A stretch of 64,000 nucleotides of DNA from Vitreimonas flagellata (GTDB taxonomy: Bacteria; Pseudomonadota; Alphaproteobacteria; Caulobacterales; Aquidulcibacteraceae), in NCBI RefSeq assembly GCF_004634425.1, contig NZ_SBJL01000004.1:186001-250000 (forward strand), in the 5' to 3' direction. The translations under genes were made by a program, and so were the position numbers. Position 1 is the stretch's first letter. Each line of letters begins with the position of its first letter. This document shows, in pieces, positions 11,254 to 29,787 of this stretch. The notes beneath the pieces are model-generated. The model had not been told where the DNA came from and ran no database searches. It saw nothing but the letters and a program-made list of their open reading frames with translations.

Positions 11254-13251
11254 TTAAGAAACCTCATGCCGCTCAAATGCCGCACGCACGGCGTCGAGCA
11301 GCGCGTGTTCGTCAAACGGCTTGCGCAGCAGCCCTGGGCGCGCGGCGGATTTTTCCAGCGCTTCCGCATCAGCCCAGCCGGATATGATGAGCAAGCGCAT
11401 GTCCGGCTGTTTGGAGCTACTGCGCTCGGCCAACTCCAAGCCTGTCATCGCTGGCATCGAATAATCGGTGACCAGCAAATCGATCTGTTCGCTCTCCACG
11501 ATGCGCAACGCTGCACCAGGATCGGCCGCTTCACGCACCGAGAAGCCAGCGTCGCGGAGCGCATGCGACACGAACTCCAACACACCGGCCTCGTCGTCCA
11601 CGACCAAGACCTTCTGCCCGTTGCCGCGTGGGGTGGGCGCCGCGGGCGCTTCGCTGGCGGCGCTTGTTTCGCGCGGCGCTTCGATTTGCGGCAGCAGCAG
11701 GCGGATCGTGGTGCCGCGCTCCGGTGCGCTGTCGATCTCGACATCGCCGCCGGATTGGCGCGCGGCGCCGAACACTTGCGCGAGGCCGAGGCCGGTGCCC
11801 TTGCCAGCGGGCTTTGTCGTGAAGAACGGTTCCATCGCGCGCTCGACCACGTCCGGCGACATGCCAAGGCCTGTGTCTGTGACGGAGAGCTCGATGAAGT
11901 CGTCACGCGTAACCGACGGACGTGTTGAAATTATGATGCGCCCGCCATCGGGCATCGCGTCGCGTGCATTGATGACCATGTTGAGGATGGCGAGCTCGAG
12001 CTGGTTTGCATCAGACCGCACCCAGCGCGCATCGGCCGCGAGATCGAACGCGATCGTTACGTCCGCGCCGACGGAACGGCGGAGCAATTCTTCCATGCCC
12101 GGCGCCAATTGGTGGAGATCGATCGACACAAGCTCCATGCGTTTGCCCCGCGAGAAGGCGAGCAATTGCTTGGTGAGCTTATCGCCGCGTTTGGCCGCGT
12201 CGAGCATGTGTTCGGCGATTTCGCGTTGCTTGGGATCCTCGATGCGCTTCAGCAGCATGTTGAGGCCGCCGATGATGACGGTGAGCAGATTGTTGAAATC
12301 GTGCGCGACGCCGCCGGTGAGTTGACCGATGGCCTCGAGCTTCTGCGTTTGCGCCATACGTTGTTCGGCCAGGCGACGTTGCGCGATATCGCGGAGCGCC
12401 CAGGCGATGACGCCGCCGGCGAGGATCAGGGCGAGCACGATGCCGGCGATGATCGCGGCGTTCGAATAGGCGCGTGGGCGTTCGATCAGGGCGGATGCGA
12501 TCGCGACGTGGGTTGACCAGCCGGTGAGGGGCGAGACGACGAAGGCGCTGTGATTGCGGAAGCCTTCGTAGGTGACGCCCTCGTAGATACCGGAGGGTTC
12601 GCCGCTGGCCACGGCGTTGCGGACAAATTCAGTGGCCGGCGTTGCGACGCGTTCGTCTTGCTGTTGGCTGCGGGCGATGAAATCGCCGTCGCGGTCGACC
12701 ATGGCGGCGATCGAGTTTTCCGGCAAATGCCGCATCAACAGATCCCGCATCGTCTCCGGCGCGATCGCGACGATGAGTTCGTAGCGGCCATCGGCGCCGA
12801 TGGGCTGGTACAGATAGAGGCACGGGCAGCCGCGACCTTCGCGGACGATGGTCTCCTGTTCGACGAGTGCGGCGTCGAGCGGAGCGCCGTCGCTGGAATA
12901 CGGCCGCCATAGGCTGAGCACGTCTTCGTTGGTGCTGCGATCGGCGATGATCACGTTGCGCCAATGTGGGTTGAGCGAAGCGACTTCGCGCACGCGCGCA
13001 TAGGCCAGCGGCCAATTGTGCGCTTCGAGCATCTCGGCCGTGGCCAAGACGCGCATCACGGCGACATCGGATTGCACCTGCGCATCGGCCAGCGCCATGA
13101 TGCGTTCGGCGCGTCCGAGTGCAAAGTTTTCGACGTCCTGCCGCTCGCGATCGAGCGTGAGCACGATCTGCAGCACGACGAGCAGAACGATCGGCAACGC
13201 CAAGGCGGCCGCGATCAACGCGTTCGAACGTAAACTTTGAAAAAATTGCAA
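11254..13251 (-). CDS. Membrane hybrid sensor histidine kinase with C-terminal receiver
   Basis: A 665-residue protein. TM1 is near residues 10-32 and TM2 near 265-286; between them is a roughly 230-residue periplasmic sensor that looks like a double-CACHE/PDC domain. Next come HisKA with the phospho-histidine H317 in GGVAHDFNNLL, HATPase boxes (NMVINARDAM, DTGLGM, GKGTGLGLAQV), a proline/alanine linker, and a receiver with the phospho-acceptor aspartate in LLVTDYSMPAM. The start appears to be TTG, with GAGG 9 bases upstream; a later ATG would remove TM1. No partner output regulator lies next door, so it is an orphan. Confidence 0.9.
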   Translation of the reverse strand: MQFFQSLRSNALIAAALALPIVLLVVLQIVLTLDRERQDVENFALGRAERIMALADAQVQSDVAVMRVLATAEMLEAHNWPLAYARVREVASLNPHWRNVIIADRSTNEDVLSLWRPYSSDGAPLDAALVEQETIVREGRGCPCLYLYQPIGADGRYELIVAIAPETMRDLLMRHLPENSIAAMVDRDGDFIARSQQQDERVATPATEFVRNAVASGEPSGIYEGVTYEGFRNHSAFVVSPLTGWSTHVAIASALIERPRAYSNAAIIAGIVLALILAGGVIAWALRDIAQRRLAEQRMAQTQKLEAIGQLTGGVAHDFNNLLTVIIGGLNMLLKRIEDPKQREIAEHMLDAAKRGDKLTKQLLAFSRGKRMELVSIDLHQLAPGMEELLRRSVGADVTIAFDLAADARWVRSDANQLELAILNMVINARDAMPDGGRIIISTRPSVTRDDFIELSVTDTGLGMSPDVVERAMEPFFTTKPAGKGTGLGLAQVFGAARQSGGDVEIDSAPERGTTIRLLLPQIEAPRETSAASEAPAAPTPRGNGQKVLVVDDEAGVLEFVSHALRDAGFSVREAADPGAALRIVESEQIDLLVTDYSMPAMTGLELAERSSSKQPDMRLLIISGWADAEALEKSAARPGLLRKPFDEHALLDAVRAAFERHEVS

Positions 13252-13310
13252 AAAATCCGACCTCGCGGCCGGACTTTAGGGGGCGCGTCGCCGCGCGGCA
13301 ATTCGGGAAC

Positions 13311-13391
13311 TTAGGCGATTGCGCCCTGGAGCGCCGCGAACGCGGGCAGGATCGCTAAAAACAATGTGATCAAATAGGCTTGGCCGCTCAT
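13311..13391 (-). CDS. Possible 26-residue membrane peptide
   Basis: A short frame starting MSGQAYLITLFLAILPAF and ending ALQGAIA. Nearly the whole length is one hydrophobic helix. A strong GGAGG ribosome site lies 6 bases before the ATG. It is upstream of the histidine kinase on the same strand. There is no family match from memory; it is supported only by the ribosome site and composition. Confidence 0.4.
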   Translation of the reverse strand: MSGQAYLITLFLAILPAFAALQGAIA

Positions 13392-13505
13392 GTATCCCTC
13401 CGTCTGATGACGCGCAGGGGTGTACGCATCGCTGTTTGCAGCGATGTTGCGGGCGCGTTTCGCACTTGGGGCGATTTCGAGGCGATCAGCTTGAATCGGG
13501 GCGCG

Positions 13506-13763
13506 CTAATTCGCAGCATCGTCCTCAGGAAACGCGCCGGCGAATTCCATGAAATAGCGACCGGGCGGATTGATCGCGCGAATGAAGGAATGGGCGCGCT
13601 CTTCGGCGATCTCTTTCGACGGGAAGACGTCTGGCCCGCCATGCACGCCGGGAAAAATTGTGCCGAGTCGGTAGAGGCTGAGCACGTGATAGACGCGATA
13701 AAAATTGCGCCAGCGTCGGGCCGGCGGCGCGTGTGTTGTCGGTGCGGGTTTGGCATCCAGCAT
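13506..13763 (-). CDS. Small hypothetical protein
   Basis: An 85-residue protein of unknown family, beginning MLDAKPAPTTHAPPARRWRN and containing an aromatic, basic stretch (FYRVYHVLSLYRLG) and the tail NPPGRYFMEFAGAF. No signal peptide or membrane helix. An alternative ATG at 13790 would add nine residues and place a run of ten G bases (13776-13785) inside the coding region. Confidence 0.55.
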   Translation of the reverse strand: MLDAKPAPTTHAPPARRWRNFYRVYHVLSLYRLGTIFPGVHGGPDVFPSKEIAEERAHSFIRAINPPGRYFMEFAGAFPEDDAAN

Positions 13764-13775
13764 GAAAGATAGGTC

Positions 13776-13785
13776 GGGGGGGGGG
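13776..13785. repeat. G10 homopolymer tract
   Basis: Ten consecutive G bases on the plus strand lie at the 5' end of the small hypothetical gene. Depending on the start used, it lies within codons 2-5 or just upstream of the start codon. Such tracts are slip-prone in replication and in sequencing. Confidence 0.8.
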
Positions 13786-13798
13786 CGCATAGAGTCAA

Positions 13799-13930
13799 GA
13801 TTCCCTCCTCGCGAAAGCGGGGAGGGTTAGGGAGGGGATGGCGCGGTGGATGCGGCTGTGCGCGATCTTTGATGATCGCGCTGTCCCCACCCCTGCCCCT
13901 CCCCGCTGCGCGAGGAGGGGTGAGCTAGCG
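13799..13930. repeat. BIME-like palindromic element, copy A of a direct duplication
   Basis: A 132-bp element made of two inverted hairpin arms: the left arm CCCTCCTCGCGAAAGCGGGG (continuing AGGG) is nearly the reverse complement of the right arm CCCCTCCCCGCTGCGCGAGG (continuing AGGGG). Compared with the copy at 14339-14470 I count about 12 mismatches, roughly 91 percent identity. It separates the small minus-strand gene from the plus-strand lipoprotein gene. Confidence 0.85.
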
Positions 13931-13972
13931 GCGCGTGTCGCGCGTATCAGGCTCATATTGGGGAGCATGATG

Positions 13973-14332
13973 ATGCGGGCAGCGGGATTGATTTTGGCGT
14001 TGGCTTTGGGCGCATGCGCGGCGCAGGCGCAGACGCCGCCGCGATTGGACGGCGATTGGGTCGTCGATCTCTCGACCGAGCCAGGCACGCCCTACACGCG
14101 GCCGATGCAGCTTGCGCTTCATGCCGATGGCACGGTGACGGGTTCGTTCTATGAAAGCGAAATTCAAGCTGGCCGCTGGCGCACCGATCGCGGCCGCACG
14201 TGCGTGAGCTTCCGCACGACAGACGGCGTCGGTCCGTATCACTCAGCCGCGTGTCTCGTCGGCGATCATGTCGAAGGACAGACCTGGGCCGAGCACCGGA
14301 ATTTTCTGTTCAATTGGAATGCGGTGCGCTGA
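13973..14332 (+). CDS. Small exported (lipo)protein of unknown function
   Basis: A 119-residue protein with an N-terminal secretion signal: MRAAGLILALALGACAAQAQ. It has both a lipobox (LGAC) and an AQA signal-peptidase I site. The rest is a small beta-rich domain (DGDWVVDLS, ADGTVTGSFYES, RWRTDRGRTCVSFRT), like a lipocalin-type or DUF2147-type strand pattern, but I cannot name the family. Of three tandem ATGs (13967, 13970, 13973) the last is best spaced from GGGGAG. It is flanked by two copies of the same palindromic repeat. Confidence 0.7.
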   Translation: MRAAGLILALALGACAAQAQTPPRLDGDWVVDLSTEPGTPYTRPMQLALHADGTVTGSFYESEIQAGRWRTDRGRTCVSFRTTDGVGPYHSAACLVGDHVEGQTWAEHRNFLFNWNAVR

Positions 14333-14338
14333 GTGCGC

Positions 14339-14470
14339 GATTCCCTCCTCGCGAAAGCGGGGAGGGTTAGGGAGGGGATTGCGCGGTGGATGCGTTTGCG
14401 CGCGATCTTTGGTGACGGAGCTGTCCCCACTCCTGCCCCTCCCCACTGCGTGAGGAGGGGTGAGTTAGCG
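14339..14470. repeat. BIME-like palindromic element, copy B of a direct duplication
   Basis: The second copy lies exactly 540 bases from copy A, in the same orientation. Its right end (TGAGTTAGCG) supplies the TAA stop codon of the minus-strand lipoprotein gene at 14465. The sequence between its arms (GCGCGGTGGATGCG...CGCGATCTTTGG) is also shared with copy A, so the pair arose by duplication and not by chance palindromy. Confidence 0.85.
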
Positions 14471-14986
14471 GCAACCCTCTAACGCCTGCGCGATTTCGGC
14501 GCTCCACGGATACACGTGAACTTCCCCGGCGACGTCGATGCCGATATTGGCTTGCGGCGCGGTGAGCAGCGTGGCGATGTCGCGCGCTTGGTCGCCCGCG
14601 AGTTCGGCGGTGACGCTGGGCAGGCCTTCGTTGAAGCTTTGCGCCGGCAGCGCGCGGTTGGCGTCGAGCGTGATGAGATTGAGCGTGGTCGCTTGATCGG
14701 GCGCGAGCTCGTGCGCGCTGGTGAGCGTGACGGCGCCGCTGCCGTGATTGCAGATGAGCACGAGCTGATACTCGCTCTCCGGCGCGCCAAAGCCCGCCGC
14801 GTGCGTGGCGCCGTCCGCCTGAAACGACCACGTACCGGTTTGCGGCGCGATGGAGAGGAGCGCGTAATTGGGGGCGGGCGCGTTTGCGTCGGCGATTTCC
14901 GCTGATGGTGTTTCGGCTGGCGCTGGCGCTTCGGGCGCGCAGGCGGCGAGCAGGATCGCGGTTGCGAGAATGAGCGCGGCGCGCAT
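14465..14986 (-). CDS. Small lipoprotein of unknown function
   Basis: A 173-residue putative lipoprotein: signal MRAALILATAILLAAC with lipobox LAAC, then an Ala/Pro-rich linker (APEAPAPAETPSAE). The mature part has a WSFQADGATHAAGFG stretch, VLICNHGSGAV, and a C-terminal VYPWSAEIAQALEGCR. It resembles small uncharacterised lipoproteins of Caulobacterales. The ATG at 14986 gives the signal directly at the start; the upstream extension lacks support. Confidence 0.7.
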   Translation of the reverse strand: MRAALILATAILLAACAPEAPAPAETPSAEIADANAPAPNYALLSIAPQTGTWSFQADGATHAAGFGAPESEYQLVLICNHGSGAVTLTSAHELAPDQATTLNLITLDANRALPAQSFNEGLPSVTAELAGDQARDIATLLTAPQANIGIDVAGEVHVYPWSAEIAQALEGCR

Positions 14987-14996
14987 GGTTTGCCCC

Positions 14997-15350
14997 TTAT
15001 GCTTCGTTTGCATCGTCGCCAACGCGCTCGGCGATGTCCATTGAATCGTGGAGCACGCGGAGAATGGTGAGTGTCATGTCATCATAGGTGAAGACGATGA
15101 TGTGGCGCGCGTGCTTGGGCGCTGCGCCGTGTGTTCGGGCGTGGCGGAGGTGGAAGAGCGAAAAGTCTGATCCAAGCTCTTCGAGTTGCCTAACCCCGGC
15201 GCGCGCGGGATCGGCGCGTAGCAGCTGGAAGGCGCGACGGATAAGCGCTTCGTAGGCGCGCGCGGCGCGTGTGCCGAATTTGCGACGCGAATACTGCAAC
15301 GTCTGCCGCTGCTCAGAGAGCGCGCGCGGCTTGACGATCAGTTTTCTCAT
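14997..15350 (-). CDS. parE: ParE/RelE-family toxin
   Basis: A 117-residue RelE/ParE-superfamily protein, second gene of a type II toxin-antitoxin pair. The N-terminus MRKLIVKPRALSE and the C-terminal ILRVLHDSMDI strand-helix are hallmarks of ParE, whose characterised members poison DNA gyrase. The ATG overlaps the parD stop by four bases, the usual antitoxin-first coupling. It is somewhat longer than typical ParE (about 95-100 residues), with a longer middle loop (LRHARTHGAAPKHAR). Confidence 0.88.
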   Translation of the reverse strand: MRKLIVKPRALSEQRQTLQYSRRKFGTRAARAYEALIRRAFQLLRADPARAGVRQLEELGSDFSLFHLRHARTHGAAPKHARHIIVFTYDDMTLTILRVLHDSMDIAERVGDDANEA

Positions 15351-15652
15351 TCAGCGGGCGTGCGCGCCGCTGCGGCGGCTTCTTCCGCCGAAACCTCAGC
15401 GTCAATCTCGTCCATCATCTGGTCGAAGAAGGCGTCGACATCGTCGATCTCAATACCAGGCCCGGAATCGATGCCTTCTTGGATCGCGACCTTCAGCGCG
15501 GCGAGCTTGAAGGCGCGCTCCTCTTGCTGCGCGTAGAGCAGGCGCAGGCCGGCGCGCATCACCTCGGACGCGTTCTGATACTGGCCCGTCTTGATCTGGG
15601 CGGTGACGAACTCGTCCAGCTCGTCCGTGAGGTTGATATTGCGCGTGGCCAT
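15347..15652 (-). CDS. parD: ParD-family antitoxin
   Basis: A 101-residue antitoxin. The N-terminal ribbon-helix-helix (MATRNINLTDELDEFVTAQI, then GQYQNASEVMRAGLRLL) binds the operator; the acidic C-terminal tail (EIDDVDAFFDQMMDEIDAE) should wrap the ParE toxin. It is the first gene of the pair and probably represses its own promoter upstream of 15652. Confidence 0.9.
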   Translation of the reverse strand: MATRNINLTDELDEFVTAQIKTGQYQNASEVMRAGLRLLYAQQEERAFKLAALKVAIQEGIDSGPGIEIDDVDAFFDQMMDEIDAEVSAEEAAAAARTPAE

Positions 15653-15691
15653 GAGGGGAGGATGGGGCAGTTGGCAAAGATTGGCAAGGGC

Positions 15692-16381
15692 TCAACCCGC
15701 CCCTTTTGCTCCCAATTCAACGACGTCCCAAAACCGATGGGCATGTGCCAATGAACTGTCCCAACGCGCCTGCAGCGGTTCGGACAGACAATGAAACGCG
15801 GCCGAGGCGGAGGCTTCCAGTTCGTTCGTGATCCGCAAAAAATCTCTGGTCTCGCCAAAGGTGGCCTGCTGAATATTTGCGTAATCCAGAGCGTGCGAGA
15901 GTAATGCATCACGAACTGGCCGCAGCTTTTGGCGCAGATCAAAGAGTGTTGAGTTTGTGGGTGGTCCTTGCTTCCAACGGGCCGGAACGCATTCCCTAAT
16001 ATGGGCTATTGACCTCTGGACGAGCGCCACGTTTTCACGCTCAAGAAATTGAGGGGTACGAGCGTCGTCTTCCAATGCGGCGACGACGGTTGAATCTTCA
16101 ATGAGCGGCACGAGTGCACAGAAAGTTTGACGATCAGCTTTATCGCCAGCGTCGTCTGAAATTCTGAAAAGGGAAGCGAGGGTATCCCTCACTAAAGATC
16201 GAAGCACGACATTGGTGGTCGTCCCTAGGCCCAGCCGATCCAAAGAACGACGCAACTCTTCGCGATGTTTTTCATCGCGGCCATTGAATGCCTCAACCAA
16301 AGTCCAAGATCGGGTGGCGGCCTTCGCCTCGTCACGCAGCCTTTCGGCGATGGCTTTCCCTTTTGCTACTCGCTCACTCAT
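15692..16381 (-). CDS. HEPN-motif protein, AbiU2-like
   Basis: A 229-residue all-helical soluble protein starting MSERVAKGKAIAERL. It contains the HEPN ribonuclease motif R-D-x4-H as RDALLSH (R157, H163), with hydrophobic helices around it, and the layout (long first helix, a LRSLVRDTLASLFRISDD stretch, then the motif) resembles AbiU2-like HEPN proteins from phage-abortive systems. Its codon use looks less GC-rich than that of neighbours, hinting at transfer. It lies 39 bases upstream of the parDE operon on the same strand. An RNase role is inference; no partner antitoxin gene abuts it. Confidence 0.6.
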   Translation of the reverse strand: MSERVAKGKAIAERLRDEAKAATRSWTLVEAFNGRDEKHREELRRSLDRLGLGTTTNVVLRSLVRDTLASLFRISDDAGDKADRQTFCALVPLIEDSTVVAALEDDARTPQFLERENVALVQRSIAHIRECVPARWKQGPPTNSTLFDLRQKLRPVRDALLSHALDYANIQQATFGETRDFLRITNELEASASAAFHCLSEPLQARWDSSLAHAHRFWDVVELGAKGAG

Positions 16382-16508
16382 CAGTGCAGTATTACAATCA
16401 GATGATGGCCTAGCCAGCCGCGCTTTCACCTTACCGACCTTGCCGGCGAGAAATGGGTGGGAGCACGGTGCTCCAATCTGTAAATGCCTGCGCCGTCTCT
16501 TATCCCAA

Positions 16509-16533
16509 CCCTCTCCCGCACTGCGGGAGAGGG
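16509..16533 (-). terminator. Terminator-like hairpin after thiC
   Basis: CCCTCTCCCGCA and CGGGAGAGGG form a strong stem of about 10 bp with a tiny loop, just past the thiC stop. It is half of the palindromic repeat found elsewhere in the window. No clear T-run follows. Confidence 0.5.
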
Positions 16534-16543
16534 GGCGATCGCG

Positions 16544-18492
<1,949 letters not shown>

Positions 18493-18635
18493 AAACCGGC
18501 CCGCCCGGAATGCGACCCACTTCAAAGTGAGCGCGCGCTCGGACGGAAAACCGGGTCCACTTTTCCTGAGCGCGCGCTGCGCGGCCCCCCGGGATATGTG
18601 CGCGTGGTGTAAGCCGCCGGCGCGCGCTTTGCAAA

Positions 18636-19346
18636 TCAACGCGGCGGCGGTTCCTTCAGTTCGATCCAGAGCGCTTCGGCGCGGGCGAGCACGGCGGCGT
18701 TGGCATCGTAGAGCGCGCTGGCGGCTTTGTATTTGCGGCCGTCGCTGGAGAGGGGCCAGGCGGCGACGATGAGTTCTTCGCCGATGCGCGGCAGGGGCGC
18801 GTCGATGCTGACGCTGAAGCGCGCGAGCACGGCGACGACTTCGCCGGCGCCCGGCAAGGCCCAATAGCCTGGGCAATCGAGTGCGGCGTGGATGAATTCA
18901 GGCGCGACGCAGCCGTCCGTGCCGGCGAGATCGGCGGCCGGACTCCAGGTGCAGGCGACCATGTCGCGATCGCGGAGCTTGCCGGTGAAAATGTCGAGGC
19001 CGTCGTGCTTGGCGCGCGAGGCGCCGCAGACGAAGCAGGTCGGAAAGGCGTGATGCAGGCCGGCGTAGCGTTTGGCTGCGTCGCGCGCGTCGGCGAGGCT
19101 GGGCGCGGGGGCCGCTTCGAGATCGAGCGTGGTGGGCTTGGCTTCGCCGATCAGTGTGTCGCCGTCATGCATGAGAACGCGGGCGCCGTCGCGGCTGAGT
19201 GTCAGCGGCGTGTTGAGCGGCGGCGGGACACGGAGCGCGGCTTCGGCGGGGCCGTCGATGTCGCGCGCCAGGAGTCCGCAGACATAGCCGCCATTGCCGG
19301 AATTGGGCGGGCCGTTGAAGCGAGCGTCGATGGTCAGAGTGCGCAT
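18636..19346 (-). CDS. Uncharacterised protein, probable double-hotdog thioesterase-like
   Basis: A 236-residue soluble protein. The start MRTLTIDARFNGPPNSGNGGYVCGLLARDI and the C-terminal half (FSVSIDAPLPRIGEELIVAAW, YDANAAVLARAEALWIEL) have the strand-helix-strand pattern of two hotdog folds. A central CFVCG motif (two Cys) is characteristic of an actinobacterial/alphaproteobacterial subgroup that I recognise only by pattern. Catalytic role unknown; acyl-CoA hydrolysis is a guess. Confidence 0.6.
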   Translation of the reverse strand: MRTLTIDARFNGPPNSGNGGYVCGLLARDIDGPAEAALRVPPPLNTPLTLSRDGARVLMHDGDTLIGEAKPTTLDLEAAPAPSLADARDAAKRYAGLHHAFPTCFVCGASRAKHDGLDIFTGKLRDRDMVACTWSPAADLAGTDGCVAPEFIHAALDCPGYWALPGAGEVVAVLARFSVSIDAPLPRIGEELIVAAWPLSSDGRKYKAASALYDANAAVLARAEALWIELKEPPPR

Positions 19347-19453
19347 GAGCGCATTTTGGCGCGGGCCGGCGGCGCGCGCCAGTGACGCAGGGCGTCGCGG
19401 CGCCCCTTACGCGCCACAATCTCCGTCATCATCTTGGCCGCGGAGCGCCCCAG

Positions 19454-19600
19454 ATGCCGACACCGGCCGAACTCACCATTCTCGTCCTGCTGGTCGCGTT
19501 GGGCGTCGGCCTGTGGACCGTGCTTGATCGGCTGGGCCAAGTGCAGCGCGATCTGGCGGCGCTGAAGCGCGAACGCGAGGACACGCCCCCAGAGGCTTAG
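19454..19600 (+). CDS. Small single-pass membrane protein
   Basis: A 48-residue protein: a short N-terminus (MPTPAE), one helix (LTILVLLVALGVGLWTVLD), then a charged coiled segment (VQRDLAALKREREDTPPEA). It runs against the MscS gene end, sharing four bases tail-to-tail. No family is recognised; the start at 19454 keeps the membrane helix at the N-terminus. Confidence 0.5.
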   Translation: MPTPAELTILVLLVALGVGLWTVLDRLGQVQRDLAALKREREDTPPEA

Positions 19601-22225: not shown

Positions 22226-22740
22226 GCGCGCACACCTGGATACGCGCCGCCACGTTGGAGGATACGCAATTCTTGCCGGACATCGAGCGCTCGTCCGGCG
22301 AGGCGTTTCGCGCTGTGCCGGACTTGGCCTGGATCGCCGATGATGCGGTGATGAGCGCCGAGCAGCACGCGCCGCTGATCGAAGCGGGCGGCGTGTGGGT
22401 GGCGGTGAAGGAGGCGCGCATTGTTGGCTTCATCGCGGTGGAGACGCTGCCGGAGGCGATGCATATCTGGCAGATGGCGGTGGAGCGTGGTGAGCAGGGG
22501 CACGGGCTTGGTCGCGCCTTGCTGAACACGGTGATTGAGACAGCGTGCTCGCGGCGTACGCCGGCCGTGACGCTGACGACGTTCCGCGACGTCGTGTGGA
22601 ACGCGCCATTCTATGCGCAATCGGGATTTCGCGTGCTTGAAGACGAAGCGCTGTGCGAACGGCTGCGCGGCATTTTGGCCAACGAGATCGCGCATGGTCT
22701 ACCGGCCGAACGGCGCTGCGCGATGCGGTTGGAGCTCTAA
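22222..22740 (+). CDS. GNAT family N-acetyltransferase
   Basis: A 172-residue GNAT. The acetyl-CoA loop is GQGHGLGRALLNT and the C-terminal strand-helix is VWNAPFYAQSGFRVLED, a pattern seen in small-molecule acetyltransferases. The ATG overlaps the aldo/keto reductase stop (ATGA), so both are translated from one message. Substrate unknown. Followed directly by a strong terminator. Confidence 0.82.
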   Translation: MSAHTWIRAATLEDTQFLPDIERSSGEAFRAVPDLAWIADDAVMSAEQHAPLIEAGGVWVAVKEARIVGFIAVETLPEAMHIWQMAVERGEQGHGLGRALLNTVIETACSRRTPAVTLTTFRDVVWNAPFYAQSGFRVLEDEALCERLRGILANEIAHGLPAERRCAMRLEL

Positions 22741-22742
22741 AG

Positions 22743-22780
22743 AAAAAGGGCCCCGCTTTCACGAGGCCCTTTGGCTTTTT
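22743..22780. terminator. Bidirectional rho-independent terminator
   Basis: AAAGGGCC and GGCCCTTT form an 8-bp perfect stem with a 12-base loop. It is followed by GGCTTTTT and preceded by AGAAAA, so it has a U-run in both directions. It lies between the convergent GNAT and TonB-receptor genes and should end both transcripts. Confidence 0.88.
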
Positions 22781-22794
22781 GCTCAGTGCAAAGC

Positions 22795-25131
22795 TTAGAA
22801 GCTCTGCCCGAAACGCAACCCGATCATCATTGGACGAGCGACGACGTCGTATTGTTCGCCGAAGCAGGTGGTGATGGCGCATTCGGTGTAGCGGCCGGTG
22901 ATGGCGCGCTCGTCGAACAGATTGTCGATGAAGAGGCTGAGATTGTAATTCTCGGCCTCGAAGCCGACCGACACATCGACCAGCCAATATTCCGGCAGCG
23001 TGCCGATGAGGCCCGCTTCGGTTTGGCGGATATCGACGGAGCGTTCGCCCACATAAGACGCGTTGCCCTGCGCGAAGCCCTGCCACGAGAAGAATGGAAA
23101 CTCGTAGCGCGCGCCGAAATCGAGCTTGAGCTCTGGCGCGACAGGTAGCGCCGTACCCGACACCGTGTCGGCGATATCAGCGCTGGTGAGTTCGCTGTCG
23201 AGCCAAGTGGCGGCGGCGTTGATGGTGAGATTGTCCGTCGGCGCCCAGGTGAGATCGGTTTCGACGCCACGGATTTCCGCATCGCCGGCGTTTTGGATCT
23301 CGGTCAGACCATTGAGGCCCAGGAACGCGAATTGGAAATCTTCCCAGACTTCGAGGAACGCCGCGCCATTCCAGCGCAAGCGGCCATTGGCCCATTCGGT
23401 TTTCCAGCCGATCTCGTAATTGTCGAGGAAATCGGAGGCATAGGGCGGCAGCGTGCCGCGGCGGTTGATGCCGCCAGGACGGAAGCCTTCCGAGTAGGTC
23501 GCATAGATCATGCGATCGTCGTCGATCCGATAGGTGAGGTTGGCGCGATAGAGTTCGCCGTCCTCTTCAGTCGACTTATCGAGATTGGTGCAGGGCTCGT
23601 TGCCGACGCTGGCGGGGCCGATGCAGGTCTGTTCACCCGGATAATCTGGGGCGAGGCCGTAGAAGGCGGCGAACGTGTCGTTGAAACCGAAATAGCCGCG
23701 AAGCGAGTTTTCGGTCTGGAACGCGCGCATGCCGAGCGTGGCTGTGAGGTTCGGCGTGAAGTCGAAGGCGACTTCGCCGAACAGCGCGGTTTCTTCGTCT
23801 GTGCGCAATTGCTCGGTGAGCCAGATCGTATCCGGCCAGCCGGTCACCTCGTGCGCATCGTTAAAGTCTTCGATGATGTAACGCTGGTGGATGCGGTGCT
23901 CGGAGTGCTGGTAGAAGGCGCCGAGGATGAAGCGCAGCGGATTTTCCGCAGGCGACGCCATGCGCAATTCGTAGGTGTCGCGATTGTAGCTGTCCCGGCC
24001 TTCGACTTGTTGCGCGGGATTGATCACGTTGAAGGCGCTGTCCGTGAAGTAGGCGCCGGAGCCCAGATACGTGTCGTAGAAATAGCCGTAATCGGCGTAG
24101 TCCTGATTGCTATCGACATCGCGTTCGAGGCGTGAGGCGGCGAAGGTGATGTCGAAATTGCTGATCTGGCCTTCGACCGTCAGCGCGCCCTGGATCCAGG
24201 TGTCCTCATTCCATTCCGGGAACCAGTGCATCACTTCGAGATCGCCCTGCGATTGCTGCTCGGCGAAGATGCCGTTGGATTCCTGGGCCTGACCCATGAT
24301 CTGCGGCGTGATGGTCCAATTCTCGTTGAGGTCGATGCCGAGTGCGACGCGCGCGCCGATCGTGTCGACGTCGTTGTAATCGTCTTCGGCGACGTCAGAG
24401 TTTTCGTCGAGCACGCCGGATTCCGGATAGAGGCGCGTGCCTTCGACGTTGTCGATGTAGCCGCCCGCATGCTCCTGCCAGGCGACGATACGCACAGCGG
24501 CGCGGTCACCCAGCGGAATGTTCACGTAGCCCGCAACCGATTGGCCCCAATCGCCTTCGGGCATCGTGTTGACTTCGAGGTCATACGAGGCGCTGAAGCC
24601 CGACGTATCGGGGCGATTGGTGATGATGCGCACGGTGCCGGCTTGCGAGCTTGCGCCATAGAGCGTGCCTTGCGGCCCGGCGAGCACTTCGACGCGCGAG
24701 ATATCGTAGAGACGCAGATCGAGATTGCCGACGATTGTGGTGATCGGCTGTTCGTCGAGATAGGTGCCGACGCTCGGCATCGAACCCGAATGGTTGCCGT
24801 TTTCGCCGCTGGCGACGCCGCGCATGAACGGGCGATTGTAGCCGGGGCCGTAGCTGGCCGCGTACGAGAGCGTCGGCAGGTGCTGAGCGTAATCGGCGAA
24901 ATCGGTGATGCCGAGTTGCTCTAAGCGCTCTTCGCCGAGCGCCTGCACGCTGATCGGCACGTCTTGGAGGTTTTCCTCGCGCTTGGTGCCGGTGATGATG
25001 ATGTCGTCGAGCCCGCCTTCTGAATCCTGCGCGAGCGCGGGCGTGGTGAAGGCGGCGCCGATTGCGGTTGTTGCGAGCAACAACGTGTTGAACGCCATTT
25101 TGCGGGAGAGCCCGCGTCTTTTCGTACTCAT
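22795..25131 (-). CDS. TonB-dependent outer-membrane receptor
   Basis: A 778-residue receptor. The signal peptide ends near TTPALAQ; a TonB box-like segment (GLDDIIITGTKRE) comes next, then the plug domain (NLQDVPISVQALGEERL, YNRPFMRGVASG) and a 22-strand barrel ending in the characteristic terminal phenylalanine (GLRFGQSF). The family is the broad alphaproteobacterial type used for carbohydrates, metal chelates or aromatic compounds; the substrate cannot be told. It is 19 bases downstream of the TPR-sulfotransferase gene. Confidence 0.93.
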   Translation of the reverse strand: MSTKRRGLSRKMAFNTLLLATTAIGAAFTTPALAQDSEGGLDDIIITGTKREENLQDVPISVQALGEERLEQLGITDFADYAQHLPTLSYAASYGPGYNRPFMRGVASGENGNHSGSMPSVGTYLDEQPITTIVGNLDLRLYDISRVEVLAGPQGTLYGASSQAGTVRIITNRPDTSGFSASYDLEVNTMPEGDWGQSVAGYVNIPLGDRAAVRIVAWQEHAGGYIDNVEGTRLYPESGVLDENSDVAEDDYNDVDTIGARVALGIDLNENWTITPQIMGQAQESNGIFAEQQSQGDLEVMHWFPEWNEDTWIQGALTVEGQISNFDITFAASRLERDVDSNQDYADYGYFYDTYLGSGAYFTDSAFNVINPAQQVEGRDSYNRDTYELRMASPAENPLRFILGAFYQHSEHRIHQRYIIEDFNDAHEVTGWPDTIWLTEQLRTDEETALFGEVAFDFTPNLTATLGMRAFQTENSLRGYFGFNDTFAAFYGLAPDYPGEQTCIGPASVGNEPCTNLDKSTEEDGELYRANLTYRIDDDRMIYATYSEGFRPGGINRRGTLPPYASDFLDNYEIGWKTEWANGRLRWNGAAFLEVWEDFQFAFLGLNGLTEIQNAGDAEIRGVETDLTWAPTDNLTINAAATWLDSELTSADIADTVSGTALPVAPELKLDFGARYEFPFFSWQGFAQGNASYVGERSVDIRQTEAGLIGTLPEYWLVDVSVGFEAENYNLSLFIDNLFDERAITGRYTECAITTCFGEQYDVVARPMMIGLRFGQSF

Positions 25132-25150
25132 CTCTTACCCCTCGCTCGAC

Positions 25151-27055
25151 CTAGACTCCTGGACCCCCGTCCAGCACCGGCTTCAGCGCTGCTTTCAGCG
25201 GCTCAAGCCAAGTCTCGTAATTGCGCCATTGCTCGACGGCGTCGCCGTAGATGGGTTGGCGCACTTGTTCGGATGACGCCGTGCGGACGGCGCGCGTGTT
25301 GGTGTGAAAGGACATGCAGGCCGCCTCGAAGGGTAGGCCGCAATACTCGAGCAGACGCCGGATCTGGGTTTCGGGATCGGCGATCAAGTCTTCGTATTGC
25401 ACGCGATGGATTCGGCTGGGCAGCGTGGCATCCATATGCGCCATCAGGCGCACATAATCGCAATAATAGCGGCCCAGATCATCGAGATCGTAGCTGAAGG
25501 TTTGGCCGCGCGCGAAATGCTGCTTGAAGGCTGAGAAGCAATTGCCGATCGGGTGACGGCGGGCGTCGATGATCTTGGCGTTCGGCAAGATCATATGGAT
25601 GAAGCCGACGTGCTGAAAATTGTTCGGCATCTTGTCGATGAAGGACGGCCGATCGGTTTTGCGCTGGACACGGGTGCGATCGAGATATTCTTGGCCGAGC
25701 GCGTGGAATTGCTCTGGCGTGAAGCTGGCGAGCGCATCGGGGTAGGAAGCGCCGTGCAGATGGCCGCCGCCGATGCGTTTGGCGATGGCGATGATGTCCG
25801 GCAATTCCATCGTGCCTTCGACGGCGGAATGGCTGGAGAGAATTTGTTCGATCAAAGTCGAGCCGGCGCGCGGCAGGCCGACGACGAAGATCGGATCGCG
25901 GGTGGGATGGCCTTGGCCAGCGTGCGCGGCGAGGCGCTGCGGCGTGAAAAAGGCGATTTGGCGATCGGTGAAAGTCGTCGTGTCGTCAGCGCTGTAGCTG
26001 ATCGCGTCGCGACGGAGCTTGGCGCCGAGATCGTAATGGCGGAACGAGGCCGCATAATCGGCCGCGTCCTCGCAAGCTTTGCCGAGCGCGTAATGCAGGT
26101 GGAAGCGGTCTTCCGACGAGATGTCCTCGCGTTGCAGCTGCGCTTCCATTTGCGCGATCATCGCTTCAGAGAAGCGATAGGTCTTCATGTTGGCGAGGCT
26201 CCAATAGGCCTCGCCAAAAGACGGCGCGTGTTCGATGGCGCTTTGGTACGCGTCGATACTGGGTTGGGTGTAGCCGGCGGTCTTGCGGGCGTGGCCCAAG
26301 CTCATCCAGCCGCGCGCGTTTGAGCCGTGGCGTTCGAGCACGGCTTCGTAAATCTCGATGGCGCGGTCGTATTCGCCGATGCGGGTGAGCGCGGAAGCTT
26401 GCAGGAAGCGATAGCTTGGATTGTCCGGCTCGGCGGCGAGCAGCAGATCGATCTGCGCGAGCGCTTCCGGCGCTTTGGTCTGGCGGTGCAGCACGAGCGC
26501 GTAATTGTGGCGCGCGGCAAGGAAGCTGGGCGCAAGCTCAAGTGCGCGGCGGAGCAACTTCTCAGAATCTTCCAGGCGGCCGAGGCGCGCGGCCACCTCC
26601 GCCAGCATGCGGATGGCGGCGACATCGGTTGGGTGCGCTTTGAGATGCGTGCGCAAGGTGTGCTCGGCGATCGAAAGCTTGTTCTCGCAAAGCGCGCGCG
26701 CGGCTTCCATCAAGCGCGGATCGGTTACGCTGGCGCGGATCGATTGCGCGTAGGCGGCGTCGGCGCCGGTATTGTCGTCGAGGATCGTGAGCTGGTCGCC
26801 GAGCGTGCGCCAAGCCGCGCTCAGCTTTGGCTCCAGCGCCGTAGCGTGACGAAGCGCGGCGATTGCGGCGACATGATCGCCCTGCGCGGCGAGCGCCAAG
26901 CCCAACGCGAAATGCGCGCGACCGTATCGCGGCGTGACGGCGATGATTTCGCGCGCTTGCTCTGCCGCAAGGTCAGGGCGGGGACGCAGCAAACGCATCG
27001 CGTTCGCCAAAGCGGCGTCCGCTGTGCCCAGCTGGTCCCCGGTCATGGCCGACAT
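25151..27055 (-). CDS. TPR-repeat sulfotransferase
   Basis: A 634-residue protein. The N-terminal half is tetratricopeptide repeats (for example AHFALGLALAAQGDHVAAIAA and ARHNYALVLHRQTKAPEALA), the C-terminal half a sulfotransferase domain with the 5'-phosphosulfate loop in DPIFVVGLPRAGSTLIEQIL and a 3'-phosphate block in KIIDARRHPIGNCFSAFKQH. It should transfer sulfate from PAPS. No signal peptide is seen from the chosen ATG, which has GAGGGAGG 6 bases upstream; the open frame continues 80 codons upstream without support. It precedes the TonB receptor gene in an apparent operon. Confidence 0.88.
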   Translation of the reverse strand: MSAMTGDQLGTADAALANAMRLLRPRPDLAAEQAREIIAVTPRYGRAHFALGLALAAQGDHVAAIAALRHATALEPKLSAAWRTLGDQLTILDDNTGADAAYAQSIRASVTDPRLMEAARALCENKLSIAEHTLRTHLKAHPTDVAAIRMLAEVAARLGRLEDSEKLLRRALELAPSFLAARHNYALVLHRQTKAPEALAQIDLLLAAEPDNPSYRFLQASALTRIGEYDRAIEIYEAVLERHGSNARGWMSLGHARKTAGYTQPSIDAYQSAIEHAPSFGEAYWSLANMKTYRFSEAMIAQMEAQLQREDISSEDRFHLHYALGKACEDAADYAASFRHYDLGAKLRRDAISYSADDTTTFTDRQIAFFTPQRLAAHAGQGHPTRDPIFVVGLPRAGSTLIEQILSSHSAVEGTMELPDIIAIAKRIGGGHLHGASYPDALASFTPEQFHALGQEYLDRTRVQRKTDRPSFIDKMPNNFQHVGFIHMILPNAKIIDARRHPIGNCFSAFKQHFARGQTFSYDLDDLGRYYCDYVRLMAHMDATLPSRIHRVQYEDLIADPETQIRRLLEYCGLPFEAACMSFHTNTRAVRTASSEQVRQPIYGDAVEQWRNYETWLEPLKAALKPVLDGGPGV

Positions 27056-27261
27056 TCGGCCTCCCTCTTCAAGTGCCATCACAGTCAGCGCTGCGCCGCT
27101 GGAACCTGTCAATGTGTCAGCGATGTGAAGCGCCGAAAGTCGACGCTTGTGGCGCCGACGCCCGTTTCGCGAGCAGGCGGCGCCGCATCTGCTAAGGGAA
27201 GTGTCGCCGGCATTACGGGGCGGCAATCGACCATTGCTGCGCGTTCGTGTAGGCGGGCGCC

Positions 27262-27870
27262 ATGAGTGAGACTCTGATCGATGGATCAACCGCACGCCCG
27301 GCGCCTTACAGCGGCTTGGGCTCGGAAATCGTGCGTTGGCTGTCTTCCGCGTATCTCACGCTCGCCGGTTGGAAGGTGCGCGGCGATTGGCCGGGTGTGG
27401 ACAAGGCCGTGTTGGTGGCGGCGCCCCATACGTCGAATTGGGACGGGCTCAATATGTTGGCGACGGCCGGCTTCTATCGCGTGAAGCTCGCCTGGATGGG
27501 CAAGAAGAGTTTGACGCAAGGCCCATTCGGTTGGGTGTTGAAGGCGATGGGCTGCGTGCCGATCGATCGCTCGCAGAGCAACGATGTCGTCAACGTGATG
27601 CGTGAAGCGTTTGCGCGGCGCGCGCGGCTGATCCTGGCGATCCCGCCCGAAGGCACGCGCACTCTGGCGCGCGAATGGAAGAGCGGCTTCTATCACATCG
27701 CCCACGGCGCCGGCGTGCCGCTGGTGATCAGCGTGTTGGATTATGGAACGAAGACCGTGAGCTTGGCGGCGGTGATCGAGCCGAGCGGAGACTACGCGGC
27801 GGACTTGGCGCTCATCCGCGCGCATTATGTCGGCGTGAAAGGCAAGCATGCGGAGAAATTCGCAGCTTAG
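27262..27870 (+). CDS. 1-acylglycerol-3-phosphate acyltransferase-like (PlsC family)
   Basis: A 202-residue acyltransferase with the catalytic HxxxxD motif as HTSNWD and a second block PPEGTR equivalent to the PlsC EGTR glycerophosphate motif. The short length and the strand pattern match the small bacterial PlsC-like group rather than full PlsC. It probably acts on a lysophospholipid or ornithine-lipid intermediate at the inner membrane. Divergent from the sulfotransferase gene. Confidence 0.82.
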   Translation: MSETLIDGSTARPAPYSGLGSEIVRWLSSAYLTLAGWKVRGDWPGVDKAVLVAAPHTSNWDGLNMLATAGFYRVKLAWMGKKSLTQGPFGWVLKAMGCVPIDRSQSNDVVNVMREAFARRARLILAIPPEGTRTLAREWKSGFYHIAHGAGVPLVISVLDYGTKTVSLAAVIEPSGDYAADLALIRAHYVGVKGKHAEKFAA

Positions 27871-28098
27871 TAAAGCGCTGATCCGGGTGCGTAGAATGCC
27901 GTGCGCAGCGAATTGCGTTGCTATTGGCGCGCTTTCAGCCTATGCAGGCTCATCGAATTCGTACTTGGTTCGGTTTTTCCTTTGTCTGCGCAGCTCTTTG
28001 AGCATAGCGCGGCCCCCGGACCTACCCTTCGCCATTCTCGAGCTTGGTCACGTAGCGCATCTGCGCTGCGCGAATTTTGTTATACGTAAGGTACTCTC
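27871..28098 (+). other. Gene-free leader region before the cold-shock gene
   Basis: This 228-base gap is less GC-rich than its surroundings and has no convincing coding frame. Cold-shock genes typically have long structured 5' untranslated leaders, and the segment with GGTTCGGTTTTTCCTTTGTC (near 27970) and the TTTTGTTATACG stretch just before the ATG fit such a leader. No named RNA motif is recognised. Confidence 0.4.
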
Positions 28099-28308
28099 AT
28101 GACTATCGGCACCGTGAAGTGGTTTAATGGCCAAAAGGGCTTTGGTTTCATCCAGCCGGACAATGGCGGCCCGGACGTTTTCGTCCACATTTCAGCCGTC
28201 GAACGCGCTGGCTGGTCCTCGCTGACTGAAGGCCAGAAGATTGGCTTCGAAAGCGAAAAAGACAGCCGCAGCGGCAAGATGTCGGCAGGCCAACTCGTGG
28301 CCGCCTAA
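28099..28308 (+). CDS. Cold-shock protein, CspA family
   Basis: A 69-residue nucleic-acid-binding protein with a single cold-shock domain. RNP1 is KGFGFIQ and RNP2 is VFVHIS. It binds single-stranded RNA or DNA and melts RNA structure at low temperature or in stationary phase. Length matches CspA (about 70 residues). It is followed by a hairpin terminator, so it is monocistronic. Confidence 0.96.
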
Positions 28309-28356
28309 AGCGCTTTGCGCTTTGGCGTGAGCTTTGGCGCATACGTTTTATCTTTT

Positions 28357-28395
28357 GCGAGGCGGGTCGGCTTGGGCCGGCCCGCCTCGTGTTTT
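28357..28395 (+). terminator. Terminator after the cold-shock gene
   Basis: GAGGCGGG...CCCGCCTC form an 8-bp stem with an inner CGG/CCG pairing, followed by GTGTTTT. It lies 50 bases after the cold-shock gene and upstream of the next small gene. Confidence 0.75.
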
Positions 28396-28415
28396 GAATC
28401 ACATCAGGAGTCGCG

Positions 28416-28607
28416 ATGAACGCCCCGCTTTTTACGATTGGCCAAAGTGTCTCTGTCGCGGTTTCCAAGCGCTATCGCTTTCCCGAGGGCGCCTATCACA
28501 TCGTCGCCGCCATGCCGAACGGCGATGGCCCGACGCTCTACCGGATCAAAGGCGATCTGGAAAAATTTGAGCGCGTGATCGACGAAATGCATCTCGCGGC
28601 GGCTTGA
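28416..28607 (+). CDS. Small conserved-type hypothetical protein
   Basis: A 63-residue soluble protein: MNAPLFTIGQSVSVAVSKRY, then AYHIVAAMPNGDGPTLYRIKG and a helical tail. The beta-rich start with a YRIK core looks like a small SH3-like fold found in many alphaproteobacteria, but no characterised family is recognised. CAGGAG lies 6 bases before the ATG. Confidence 0.7.
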   Translation: MNAPLFTIGQSVSVAVSKRYRFPEGAYHIVAAMPNGDGPTLYRIKGDLEKFERVIDEMHLAAA

Positions 28608-28611
28608 GGGC

Positions 28612-28941
28612 TCAAGCGCCGGTCTCGTCGACGACGATGGGCACGGGTTTTCCGCGGGACATGGGATCCCAACCGGCAGCGATGGCGGAAAGGATGGCGC
28701 GCGTCACGAGTGACGTCGGAATCTGCGACGGCTTCAAAGGCGGTGCGCCGAATTTCGGCGGGGGCCCGGCCGGAAATTCTATGATGGCTTCGCGCTGCCC
28801 TTCCTTGTGACGCACGGCGATCGCCTTGCCGTGGCATTGCGTGGGATTGTTGGACCATTGCGGCGTGCGCTGTAGGCGCCAGATATAGAACTCGCCCTCG
28901 ACCTTGATCTCAAATTCAGTGGGGTTCTTCGCGCGCGCCAT
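28612..28941 (-). CDS. Hypothetical protein
   Basis: A 109-residue soluble protein starting MARAKNPTEFEIKVEGEFYIWRLQR, basic in the middle (CHGKAIAVRHKEGQREAIIEF) and proline-rich (PAGPPPKFGAPPLKPSQIP). No family recognised. It runs toward the plus-strand small gene, leaving only 4 bases between the two stop codons. Confidence 0.6.
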   Translation of the reverse strand: MARAKNPTEFEIKVEGEFYIWRLQRTPQWSNNPTQCHGKAIAVRHKEGQREAIIEFPAGPPPKFGAPPLKPSQIPTSLVTRAILSAIAAGWDPMSRGKPVPIVVDETGA

Positions 28942-28966
28942 GCGAGGGGATTAGCGTGGCTCGCCG

Positions 28967-29737
28967 TCACAAGCTAGCCATTGAGCGCGATCGCAGCGCA
29001 GCCTGCAATGTTGTGTAGTGCCCCAAGCCTTCGAGGATGTTGAGCGTGGCGCGCGACTGCAAGCGCGTTGCCATTGCACGGGCCATGTCGGTCGGTGTCC
29101 AAGTGTCTTCATCGCCTTGCCAGATTTCTGTCTGGCACTTCACTGCGTCGAGAACATGCGCCCAGGGGCGCACATACGTTTCCAATTCTGCGCGATAGGC
29201 GGCTTGTTGCGCGCCGAGGCATCGCTTGAGCGCCTCAAGGGCCATCGCGGAGTATGCCGGATTGGCCAACAGATCGCGCTCCGCCGCGTTGCTGGTGGCG
29301 AACATGGTTTTGAGCATCAAGTCAGGCGCGAGGGACGCCAAGATCGATTGGATGCTGCTGAGCAACCCCAATGAAAGGGCGCCGCGCCGCGCAGCTTCGA
29401 AGACGGGTCGTCCGGCCATCGTAGGAAGGAAATCGCCAAGCTCCAGCGGCGCCGCCGGCGAGATCAGCACAAGCGTGCGCACCAACGTTGGTCGATAGGC
29501 TGCGATGTGCGTCGCGGCCATGGCGCCAAGCGAAAATCCGACGACATCGATAGGCTCTGAGGTATTGAGCGCGTCGAAGCCGCTGCACACGCGGTCAGCA
29601 TAGGCGGCGGGCTGTTGTGTCAGCCGGTCGAGAAGCCGCGCGCCGCGCAGGTGCTCTGCCGGCGCCAAGGCGCGTAATTCTGTCGGCGCGCCAGGCAGGC
29701 CGTGACAATAGACAAAATCCATCTCCGAGCGGTGCAT
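28967..29737 (-). CDS. Alpha/beta hydrolase
   Basis: A 256-residue alpha/beta-hydrolase-fold protein. The nucleophile elbow is GFSLGA (G-x-S-x-G). A likely catalytic Asp lies in GDEDTWTP and the His in GLGHYTTLQ, and the oxyanion region is YCHGLPGAPTEL. The ATG at 29737 (MHRSEMDF) is chosen because the upstream extension is Arg-rich and non-domain-like. It is third in the acs operon after the SMI1 gene. Substrate unknown. Confidence 0.75.
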   Translation of the reverse strand: MHRSEMDFVYCHGLPGAPTELRALAPAEHLRGARLLDRLTQQPAAYADRVCSGFDALNTSEPIDVVGFSLGAMAATHIAAYRPTLVRTLVLISPAAPLELGDFLPTMAGRPVFEAARRGALSLGLLSSIQSILASLAPDLMLKTMFATSNAAERDLLANPAYSAMALEALKRCLGAQQAAYRAELETYVRPWAHVLDAVKCQTEIWQGDEDTWTPTDMARAMATRLQSRATLNILEGLGHYTTLQAALRSRSMASL

Positions 29738-29787
29738 CAGGCGAACGTCATCGGCAATGCGGCTGATGCGCCGGAGCGGCGGGTGCG

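What the first reader, a model, noticed from the sequence alone, without database searches (positions are those of the whole stretch)
14997..16381. ParDE toxin-antitoxin pair next to a HEPN ribonuclease-motif protein
A canonical parD-parE pair is preceded by a gene with the HEPN motif R-D-x4-H (RDALLSH), similar to AbiU2-like proteins. The gene appears less GC-rich than its neighbours. The cluster is flanked by palindromic elements on both sides, like a small mobile defence or stability island. The HEPN gene lacks an obvious antitoxin (MNT or other) next door, so ParD or another protein might restrain it.
Basis: partly seen in the sequence, partly recalled or inferred. Interest (0 to 1): 0.5.

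Follow-up and report, generated by a model that had tools for sequence, protein, structure and literature searches.

The report
Swappable defence-gene slot beside resident parDE
A probable phage-defence RNA-cutting gene sits in a small chromosomal slot between the vitamin gene thiC and an older toxin-antitoxin pair, and related bacteria that keep the pair mostly carry a different toxin or defence gene in the same slot.

Summary
The genes are real. 15692-16381(-) encodes a 229-aa HEPN protein of the AbiU2 kind. It scores below Pfam's cut-off, but its only close homologue found passes it, and R157...H163 is invariant in 5 of 5 sequences. parD (15347-15652) and parE (14997-15350) are canonical. 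The HEPN gene is foreign in composition (GC3 0.52, z -3.9); parD is native (0.81).

The HEPN gene is accessory: 2 of 60 family genomes have a clear match, both as thiC-HEPN-parD-parE. parD looks older than its neighbour: 8 of 8 strong ParD homologues in those 60 genomes, plus a split ninth, lie beside thiC with variable cargo between (AbiU2, zeta toxin, DUF3800, DUF5131, Fic, Ymh+DUF5343, one unknown). Genomes without this parD carry PARIS, HipAB, a methylase or Swt1-HEPN+DUF5343 there. Homology upstream of parD ends about 35 bp before its ATG, at a conserved repeat with leaderless-promoter geometry. Cargo has lower GC3 than parD in 8 of 8 pairs.

So this is a one-cargo hotspot with an exchangeable occupant and, in 9 of 27 loci, a resident parD (parE detected in 6). 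Enrichment for defence genes is suggestive only. ParD as HEPN antitoxin is poorly supported. No integrase was seen. Functions are inferred; structure prediction failed.

The parts
15692..16381 (-). HEPN_AbiU2-like predicted endoribonuclease, 229 aa: the cargo gene
   Evidence: GC3 0.522, z -3.9
15893..15913 (-). HEPN motif RDALLSH (residues 157-163, R-x5-H)
   Evidence: R157 and H163 invariant in 5 of 5 aligned homologues; position checked
15653..15687 (-). conserved parD leader: TTGCCAAT-2nt-TTGCCA direct repeats; TTGCCA at -35 and CATCCT at -10 relative to the ATG (candidate leaderless promoter/operator)
   Evidence: repeat present in 8 of 9 parD loci while DNA further upstream differs; pattern search; the consensus promoter scanner did not report it
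15347..15652 (-). parD antitoxin, 101 aa
   Evidence: TIGR02606 E 2.8e-22; PF03693
14997..15350 (-). parE toxin, 117 aa, overlapping parD by 4 bp
   Evidence: PF05016 over cut-off; PDB 7ycs toxin E 1.5e-6
16509..16533 (.). palindrome next to the thiC 3' end (terminator- or REP-like), border of the slot on the thiC side
   Evidence: homology of several relatives reaches 16489-16509
16544..18394 (-). thiC, conserved flank of the slot
   Evidence: PF01964 E 1.1e-185; matched in 27 of 30 genus genomes
14465..14986 (-). small lipoprotein-like gene beyond parE, variably present
13506..13790 (-). conserved small gene, the distal backbone border of the variable slot

Best explanation
The DNA between thiC and the small gene at 13506-13790 is a chromosomal slot for accessory defence or toxin genes. 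An older resident, parDE (in some genomes parD alone), sits at one side of it in part of two genera, driven by its own compact promoter (a TTGCCAAT repeat at -35, a -10 just before the ATG, probably a leaderless mRNA). The gene between thiC and parD is exchangeable cargo. Here it is an AbiU2-type HEPN protein, predicted to be a metal-independent endoribonuclease (R-x5-H) that stays quiet until phage infection and then cuts RNA so that the infected cell stops growing. Cargo is probably replaced by homologous recombination in the conserved flanks (thiC on one side, parDE or the backbone on the other), without an integrase. ParDE most likely acts on its own, as a gyrase-targeting toxin with its antitoxin, and penalises loss of the slot. 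Shown here: gene identities, the conserved motif, the resident ParD, the turnover of cargo, uncoupling of cargo and parDE, foreign composition of cargo, and the conserved 35-bp leader. Inferred: RNase activity, phage trigger, gyrase target, stabilising role, leaderless start and route of exchange.
For: AbiU2: the homologue passes PF18734, R and H are invariant in 5 of 5, and a profile of the five finds 8 of 16 independently fetched AbiU2 loci. Resident parD: 8 strong ParD hits in 60 family genomes (E below 1e-38; next hit 6.6e-21), all 8 beside thiC, plus a split copy in G011. Cargo differs: AbiU2 (own, G542), zeta (G005), DUF3800 (G007), DUF5131 (G006), Fic (G018), Ymh+DUF5343 (G615, G497), unknown (G011). 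Uncoupling: ParD/ParE of G542 and G615 are 87/91% identical yet their cargo differs; G615 and G497 share cargo families but their ParD/ParE are 62/50% identical. Homology upstream of parD ends at 15687-15688 in 4 of 5 same-genus relatives and at 15674 in the fifth. Cargo GC3 is below parD GC3 in 8 of 8 loci compared. TA/defence families by Pfam or PADLOC in 17 of the first 40 slot ORFs scanned against 0 of 10 ORFs from other variable junctions (Fisher p 0.009). L. lactis AbiU2 did not inhibit E. coli growth (PMC3985639, passage), so an antitoxin need not be needed.
Against: The enrichment is weak on equal terms: counting Pfam families alone it is 11 of 40 against 0 of 10, p 0.06, and six more slot ORFs scanned later added none. 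The slot ranks only 4th of 18 junctions by length variation. 13 of 27 slots gave no recognised TA or defence family, one of them (G015) nearly empty; PADLOC also found nothing in nine slot ORFs that Pfam had left without a telling family. Both genomes with the close HEPN homologue have parDE, with the same 4-nt junction, and homology of G542 runs to 15692, which also fits a HEPN-parDE unit. parE was not detected in 3 of 9 parD loci, which weakens addiction. No structure support: AlphaFold pLDDT 42. No phage or toxicity data exist here for this protein.
Confidence: 0.5

Rival explanations
1. Three-gene toxin-antitoxin unit: HEPN is a toxin restrained by ParD, or by the ParD-ParE complex, and the three genes function and move together.
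For: Both genomes with the close HEPN homologue have it followed by parDE, the stop codon lying 4 nt (GCCC) before the parD -35 box in both; no MNT gene next door.
Against: The same kind of ParD accompanies five other recognised cargo types and one unknown, and in several the cargo lies on the opposite strand. Cargo and ParDE are uncoupled. None of the 19 other AbiU2 loci examined had this ParD or ParE within the flank held (at most 1.5 kb a side for 16, about 5 kb for 3). L. lactis AbiU2 was not toxic in E. coli (PMC3985639, passage).
Confidence: 0.1
2. Neutral variable intergenic region: parDE and cargo are unrelated passengers, with no stabilising role for parDE and no defence role for the slot.
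For: Six of 18 junctions in this stretch vary by more than 4 kb; 13 of 27 slots gave no recognised TA/defence gene; 3 of 9 parD loci lack a detectable parE; the Pfam-only contrast is not significant (p 0.06).
Against: 17 of 40 slot ORFs are TA/defence families by Pfam or PADLOC against 0 of 10 at other variable junctions, those by Pfam only; the parD leader is conserved across two genera.
Confidence: 0.35
3. A dedicated small mobile element carries HEPN-parDE, with the palindromes as its ends.
For: Palindromes near the cluster; foreign composition of the HEPN gene.
Against: No integrase or transposase family among 46 slot ORFs. The palindrome remains beside thiC in the nearly empty slot of G015. 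The two 134-nt elements flank another gene. parD is compositionally native. The only tRNA found in the window is 9 kb away.
Confidence: 0.05

Closest known systems
AbiU2 / HEPN_AbiU2 (PF18734), component of lactococcal AbiU
   Same: Similar size, R-x5-H motif, profile match; PMC3710099 lists AbiU2 as a HEPN family with the active motif, in operons with R-M genes or a Sel1-repeat gene (passages).
   Different: No abiU1, Sel1 or R-M gene seen next to it; 19-24% identity to three other AbiU2 of the order; this parDE neighbour in only 2 of 21 AbiU2 loci examined.
ParDE type II toxin-antitoxin
   Same: Antitoxin first, 4-bp overlap, both families over curated cut-offs.
   Different: A resident of one chromosomal locus, with a conserved leader abutting exchangeable cargo.
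Core defence hotspots of Pseudomonas aeruginosa, cDHS1/2 (PMC10250203, abstract and outline seen)
   Same: Fixed core-gene flanks with varied defence genes.
   Different: Those have medians of 26 kb and 6 kb and many systems; here cargo of about 0.8-1.8 kb lies between thiC and parD in the nine parD loci.
Hotspots without mobile elements (Oliveira et al. 2017, PMC5635113, passages seen)
   Same: Fast gene turnover between core genes, no recognised integrase, proposed exchange by recombination at flanking core genes.
   Different: Here a TA pair lies inside the slot beside the exchanged part; recombination in the flanks was not tested.
HipAB stabilising a genomic island in Shewanella putrefaciens (PMC8978831, abstract and outline seen)
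   Same: A TA pair that helps keep an accessory island.
   Different: That is a tRNA-integrated 48-kb island with integrase and excisionase; here none seen and stabilisation untested.

Membership tests
HEPN_AbiU2 (PF18734) | Profile match over the curated cut-off | tested here: inconclusive
   Window protein 18.8 of 26.8 bits; its 49% identical homologue 33.6 bits, over the cut-off; reciprocal profile finds 8 of 16 AbiU2 loci
HEPN_AbiU2 (PF18734) | R-x4-6-H catalytic motif | tested here: met
   R157 and H163 invariant in 5 of 5
HEPN_AbiU2 (PF18734) | HEPN helical fold | tested here: inconclusive
   AlphaFold pLDDT 42, all helical but unusable
HEPN_AbiU2 (PF18734) | RNase activity and phage abortive infection | not testable with these tools
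   needs bench work
ParDE type II TA | parD (RHH antitoxin) directly upstream of parE toxin, both recognised | tested here: met
ParDE type II TA | ParE poisons gyrase and ParD neutralises it | not testable with these tools
   family knowledge only
HEPN-MNT (type VII) TA | MNT nucleotidyltransferase gene adjacent to HEPN | tested here: not met
   neighbours are thiC and parD
Defence hotspot | Conserved flanks, varied defence genes between them | tested here: met
   14 of 27 loci in two genera with TA/defence families of several kinds; statistical enrichment over other variable junctions is only suggestive
Integrase-driven genomic island | Integrase or recombinase, attachment sites | tested here: not met
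   none among 46 slot ORFs; attachment sites were not searched systematically

The most novel reading that the evidence does not exclude
The parDE pair is a resident anchor of a one-cargo immune slot: cells that lose the parD side of the slot are poisoned, while the cargo upstream of the fixed parD promoter can be swapped by recombination in thiC and parDE, so the lineage renews its anti-phage weapon at a fixed, addiction-protected address.
Probability: 0.3. Interest if true: 0.65.

Novelty: new variant of a known kind. Interest (0 to 1): 0.45.

Why it matters
A fixed address between thiC and parDE, at a 35-bp parD leader, lets one pull out defence-gene candidates from this bacterial family: several slots hold genes without any family recognised here. 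It also gives a natural test of whether a chromosomal toxin-antitoxin pair protects a neighbouring immune locus from loss, a question usually asked for plasmids and large islands. For the HEPN gene it turns 'what is its antitoxin' into 'does it need one'.

Tried and rejected
Close relatives of the HEPN protein were sought in plasmids, phages, IMG/VR and genome contigs: only one other carrier, the same contig already seen as G542. Scans with two distant AbiU2 proteins in IMG/VR found none. Weak hits (L002-L005) and two (G468, G589) were dropped: ORFs of L003 and L005 were read and looked unrelated; L002 and L004 looked like a topoisomerase and a phosphotransferase (by eye). A weak hit elsewhere in G015 was not followed. 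Structure prediction failed twice, so no fold search was run. The 134-nt repeat as island border was rejected: two full copies and eight partial copies in the genome. No Rfam match in 13000-19500. The slot as the only variable place was rejected: it ranks 4th of 18 junctions.

On the enrichment count: the 40 slot ORFs include two genomes of a third genus (G537, G589); 20 of the 46 slot ORFs were also scanned with PADLOC. The 10 control ORFs were picked by eye from 33 listed and scanned with Pfam only; one, an ABC transporter, also overlaps AAA_21 ('putative AbiEii') and was counted as a transporter.

Script faults: minus-strand loci were not turned, so the proteins printed for L007, L010, L011, L014, L016 and L019 are wrong and unused; one search gives a wrong-frame value for the G023 zeta gene, corrected. 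Paper searches: ParDE+HEPN+defense; thiC+hotspot; DUF5343, none; none of the titles and abstract openings shown described this arrangement; the listings show only the top papers. A passage search in PMC10121019 showed none on thiC.

Full report
OBSERVATION. ParD and ParE pass curated cut-offs. The window HEPN protein matches HEPN_AbiU2 (PF18734) below the cut-off (18.8 of 26.8 bits, E 0.0012) and no PADLOC model. Its one close homologue, 49-51% identical, passes (33.6 bits). In an alignment of the window protein with four homologues from the order, R157 and H163 are invariant, and a profile of these five finds 8 of 16 AbiU2 loci taken independently from the class. The motif spacing is R-x5-H. 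The gene is a compositional outlier (GC3 0.522, z -3.9, against 24 backbone genes), while parD (0.814) and parE (0.712) are not.

DISTRIBUTION. The HEPN gene is accessory: found in 1 of 61 genomes of the first set (the window's own), and in 2 of 60 genomes of the family with a clear match, plus one weak hit elsewhere in G015. The second carrier, G542, is in another genus; the same contig appears as WGOB01000020.1, a MAG named Alphaproteobacteria bacterium isolate RI_27. It has the same order, thiC-HEPN-parD-parE, and in both the HEPN stop codon lies 4 nt, GCCC, before the parD -35 box. More distant AbiU2 genes exist in the order (G518, G642, G459; 19-24% identity). The one in G642, in another family, also lies 3' of thiC with one small gene between. 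ParD and ParE profiles found no partner in the other 19 AbiU2 loci within the flanks held.

THE RESIDENT PARD(E). A profile of this ParD over 60 family genomes gives eight hits below 1e-38 and then a gap to 6.6e-21. All eight (own, G005, G006, G007, G018, G542, G615, G497) lie within 2 kb of the 3' end of thiC; a ninth, G011, has ParD in two frames at the same place. ParE was detected beside six of the nine. In nine of nine there is other DNA, 0.8-1.8 kb by the coordinates, between thiC and parD.

THE CARGO. Of 30 genus genomes, 27 gave a thiC match and 23 had enough 3' flank to read; with the four genomes of the second genus that is 27 loci. Four genus genomes with thiC were dropped because the contig ends or lacks the flank (G012, G021, G025, G028); of the two thiC matches in G003 only one was followed. 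By Pfam and PADLOC 14 of 27 hold a toxin or defence family: AbiU2 (own, G542), zeta toxin (G005, G014, G023), DUF3800/PDC-M04 (G007), DUF5131 with a partner/PDC-M41 (G006), Fic (G018; also SoFic and PDC-S04), DUF5343+Swt1-HEPN/PDC-M34 (G020), HipA with an HTH protein (G026), AriAB/PARIS fusion (G004), D12/type II methylase (G003), Ymh+DUF5343 (G615, G497). One (G015) is nearly empty: 133 bp between thiC and the gene at 13506. In the other 12 the ORFs scanned gave no telling family; G010 has a DUF559 protein, not counted. Three HEPN families occur in this one slot: AbiU2, Swt1 and Ymh (PMC3710099 names Ymh as a HEPN domain, passage; PADLOC match to Aga_HEPN).

UNCOUPLING. ParD/ParE of G542 and G615 are 87/91% identical, yet the cargo is AbiU2 in one and Ymh+DUF5343 in the other; G615 and G497 share these cargo families although their ParD/ParE are only 62/50% identical. 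The window's ParD is closest to G005 (82%), whose cargo is a zeta-toxin-like protein. In the eight loci compared (G011 left out) the main cargo gene has lower GC3 than parD every time. DNA homology upstream of parD stops at 15687, 15688, 15687 and 15687 in G005, G007, G006 and G018, at 15674 in G011, and at 15692 in G542. The retained 35 bp carry TTGCCAAT-2nt-TTGCCA in eight of nine loci. TTGCCA falls at -35 and CATCCT (CATTAT in G011) at -10 relative to the A of the ATG with a 17-nt spacer, the geometry of a leaderless promoter (inference; the consensus scanner found no promoter at its threshold). A search of 398 order genomes with this pattern gave 34 hits in 32 genomes. In the two genera the eight hits are exactly the eight parD leaders; the other 26 hits lie in 24 other genomes and were not examined; the reversed control pattern gave six hits.

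CONTROLS. The backbone on both sides is largely syntenic in nine relatives. Of 18 junctions between conserved genes, this one ranks fourth in length variation (133-4887 bp in eight relatives), behind junctions varying by 5.8-6.6 kb, so turnover as such is not unique. Content differs: 17 of the first 40 slot ORFs scanned are toxin or defence families by Pfam or PADLOC, against 0 of 10 large ORFs from other variable junctions, which hold peptidases, a TonB receptor, dehydrogenases and the like (Fisher p 0.009). That control was small, Pfam only, and picked after seeing the slot. With Pfam families alone the contrast is 11 of 40 against 0 of 10, p 0.06, or 0.08 with 45, and six further slot ORFs added none. 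The enrichment is suggestive, no more.

INTERPRETATION. The reading I favour is an exchangeable one-cargo slot with a resident parD or parDE in part of two genera. Exchange by recombination in the flanks follows the model for hotspots without mobile elements (PMC5635113, passages) and was not tested. AbiU2 as RNase and abortive-infection protein rests on family knowledge (PMC3710099, passages). Lactococcal AbiU2 expressed alone in E. coli did not inhibit growth (PMC3985639, passages), so the missing antitoxin is not a puzzle that ParD must solve. ParD as HEPN antitoxin is not excluded, since both known carriers have parDE, but it must explain why the same kind of ParD lives with five other recognised cargo types and one unknown. 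The palindrome at 16509-16533 stays beside thiC in the nearly empty G015 slot and reads as a feature of thiC, perhaps its terminator.

LIMITS. No usable structure, so no fold search was made. The carriers of the close HEPN number two. All functions are inferred.

Noticed in passing
window 13799-13932 and 14339-14472: Two 134-nt direct copies (91% identical) of an element with inverted repeats flank the small gene at 13967-14332; eight partial copies elsewhere in the genome.
   Followed up: partly
L077:3508-5577 (G004): A 689-aa fused AriAB (PARIS) protein, PADLOC E 1.6e-153, lies in the thiC slot of a related genome.
   Followed up: partly
L092:4817-5488 (G642): A distant AbiU2 gene lies 3' of thiC, one gene away, in another family of the order: the slot may be older or wider than two genera.
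   Followed up: partly
L098:298-1486 and L099:241-1438: A Ymh-family gene plus a DUF5343 gene, a pair that parallels the DUF5343+Swt1-HEPN pair (PADLOC PDC-M34) of G020: DUF5343 may be a partner of several HEPN proteins. The paper library holds no paper with the word DUF5343.
   Followed up: partly
L074:3926-5605, L076:4252-5745, L078:4244-5338: Large slot genes (559, 497, 364 aa) without a significant Pfam family or PADLOC match: candidate unknown defence genes.
   Followed up: partly
window 22226-30431: Another highly variable stretch, 2.7-8.7 kb in relatives; it contains tRNA-Trp at 25771-25867.
   Followed up: no
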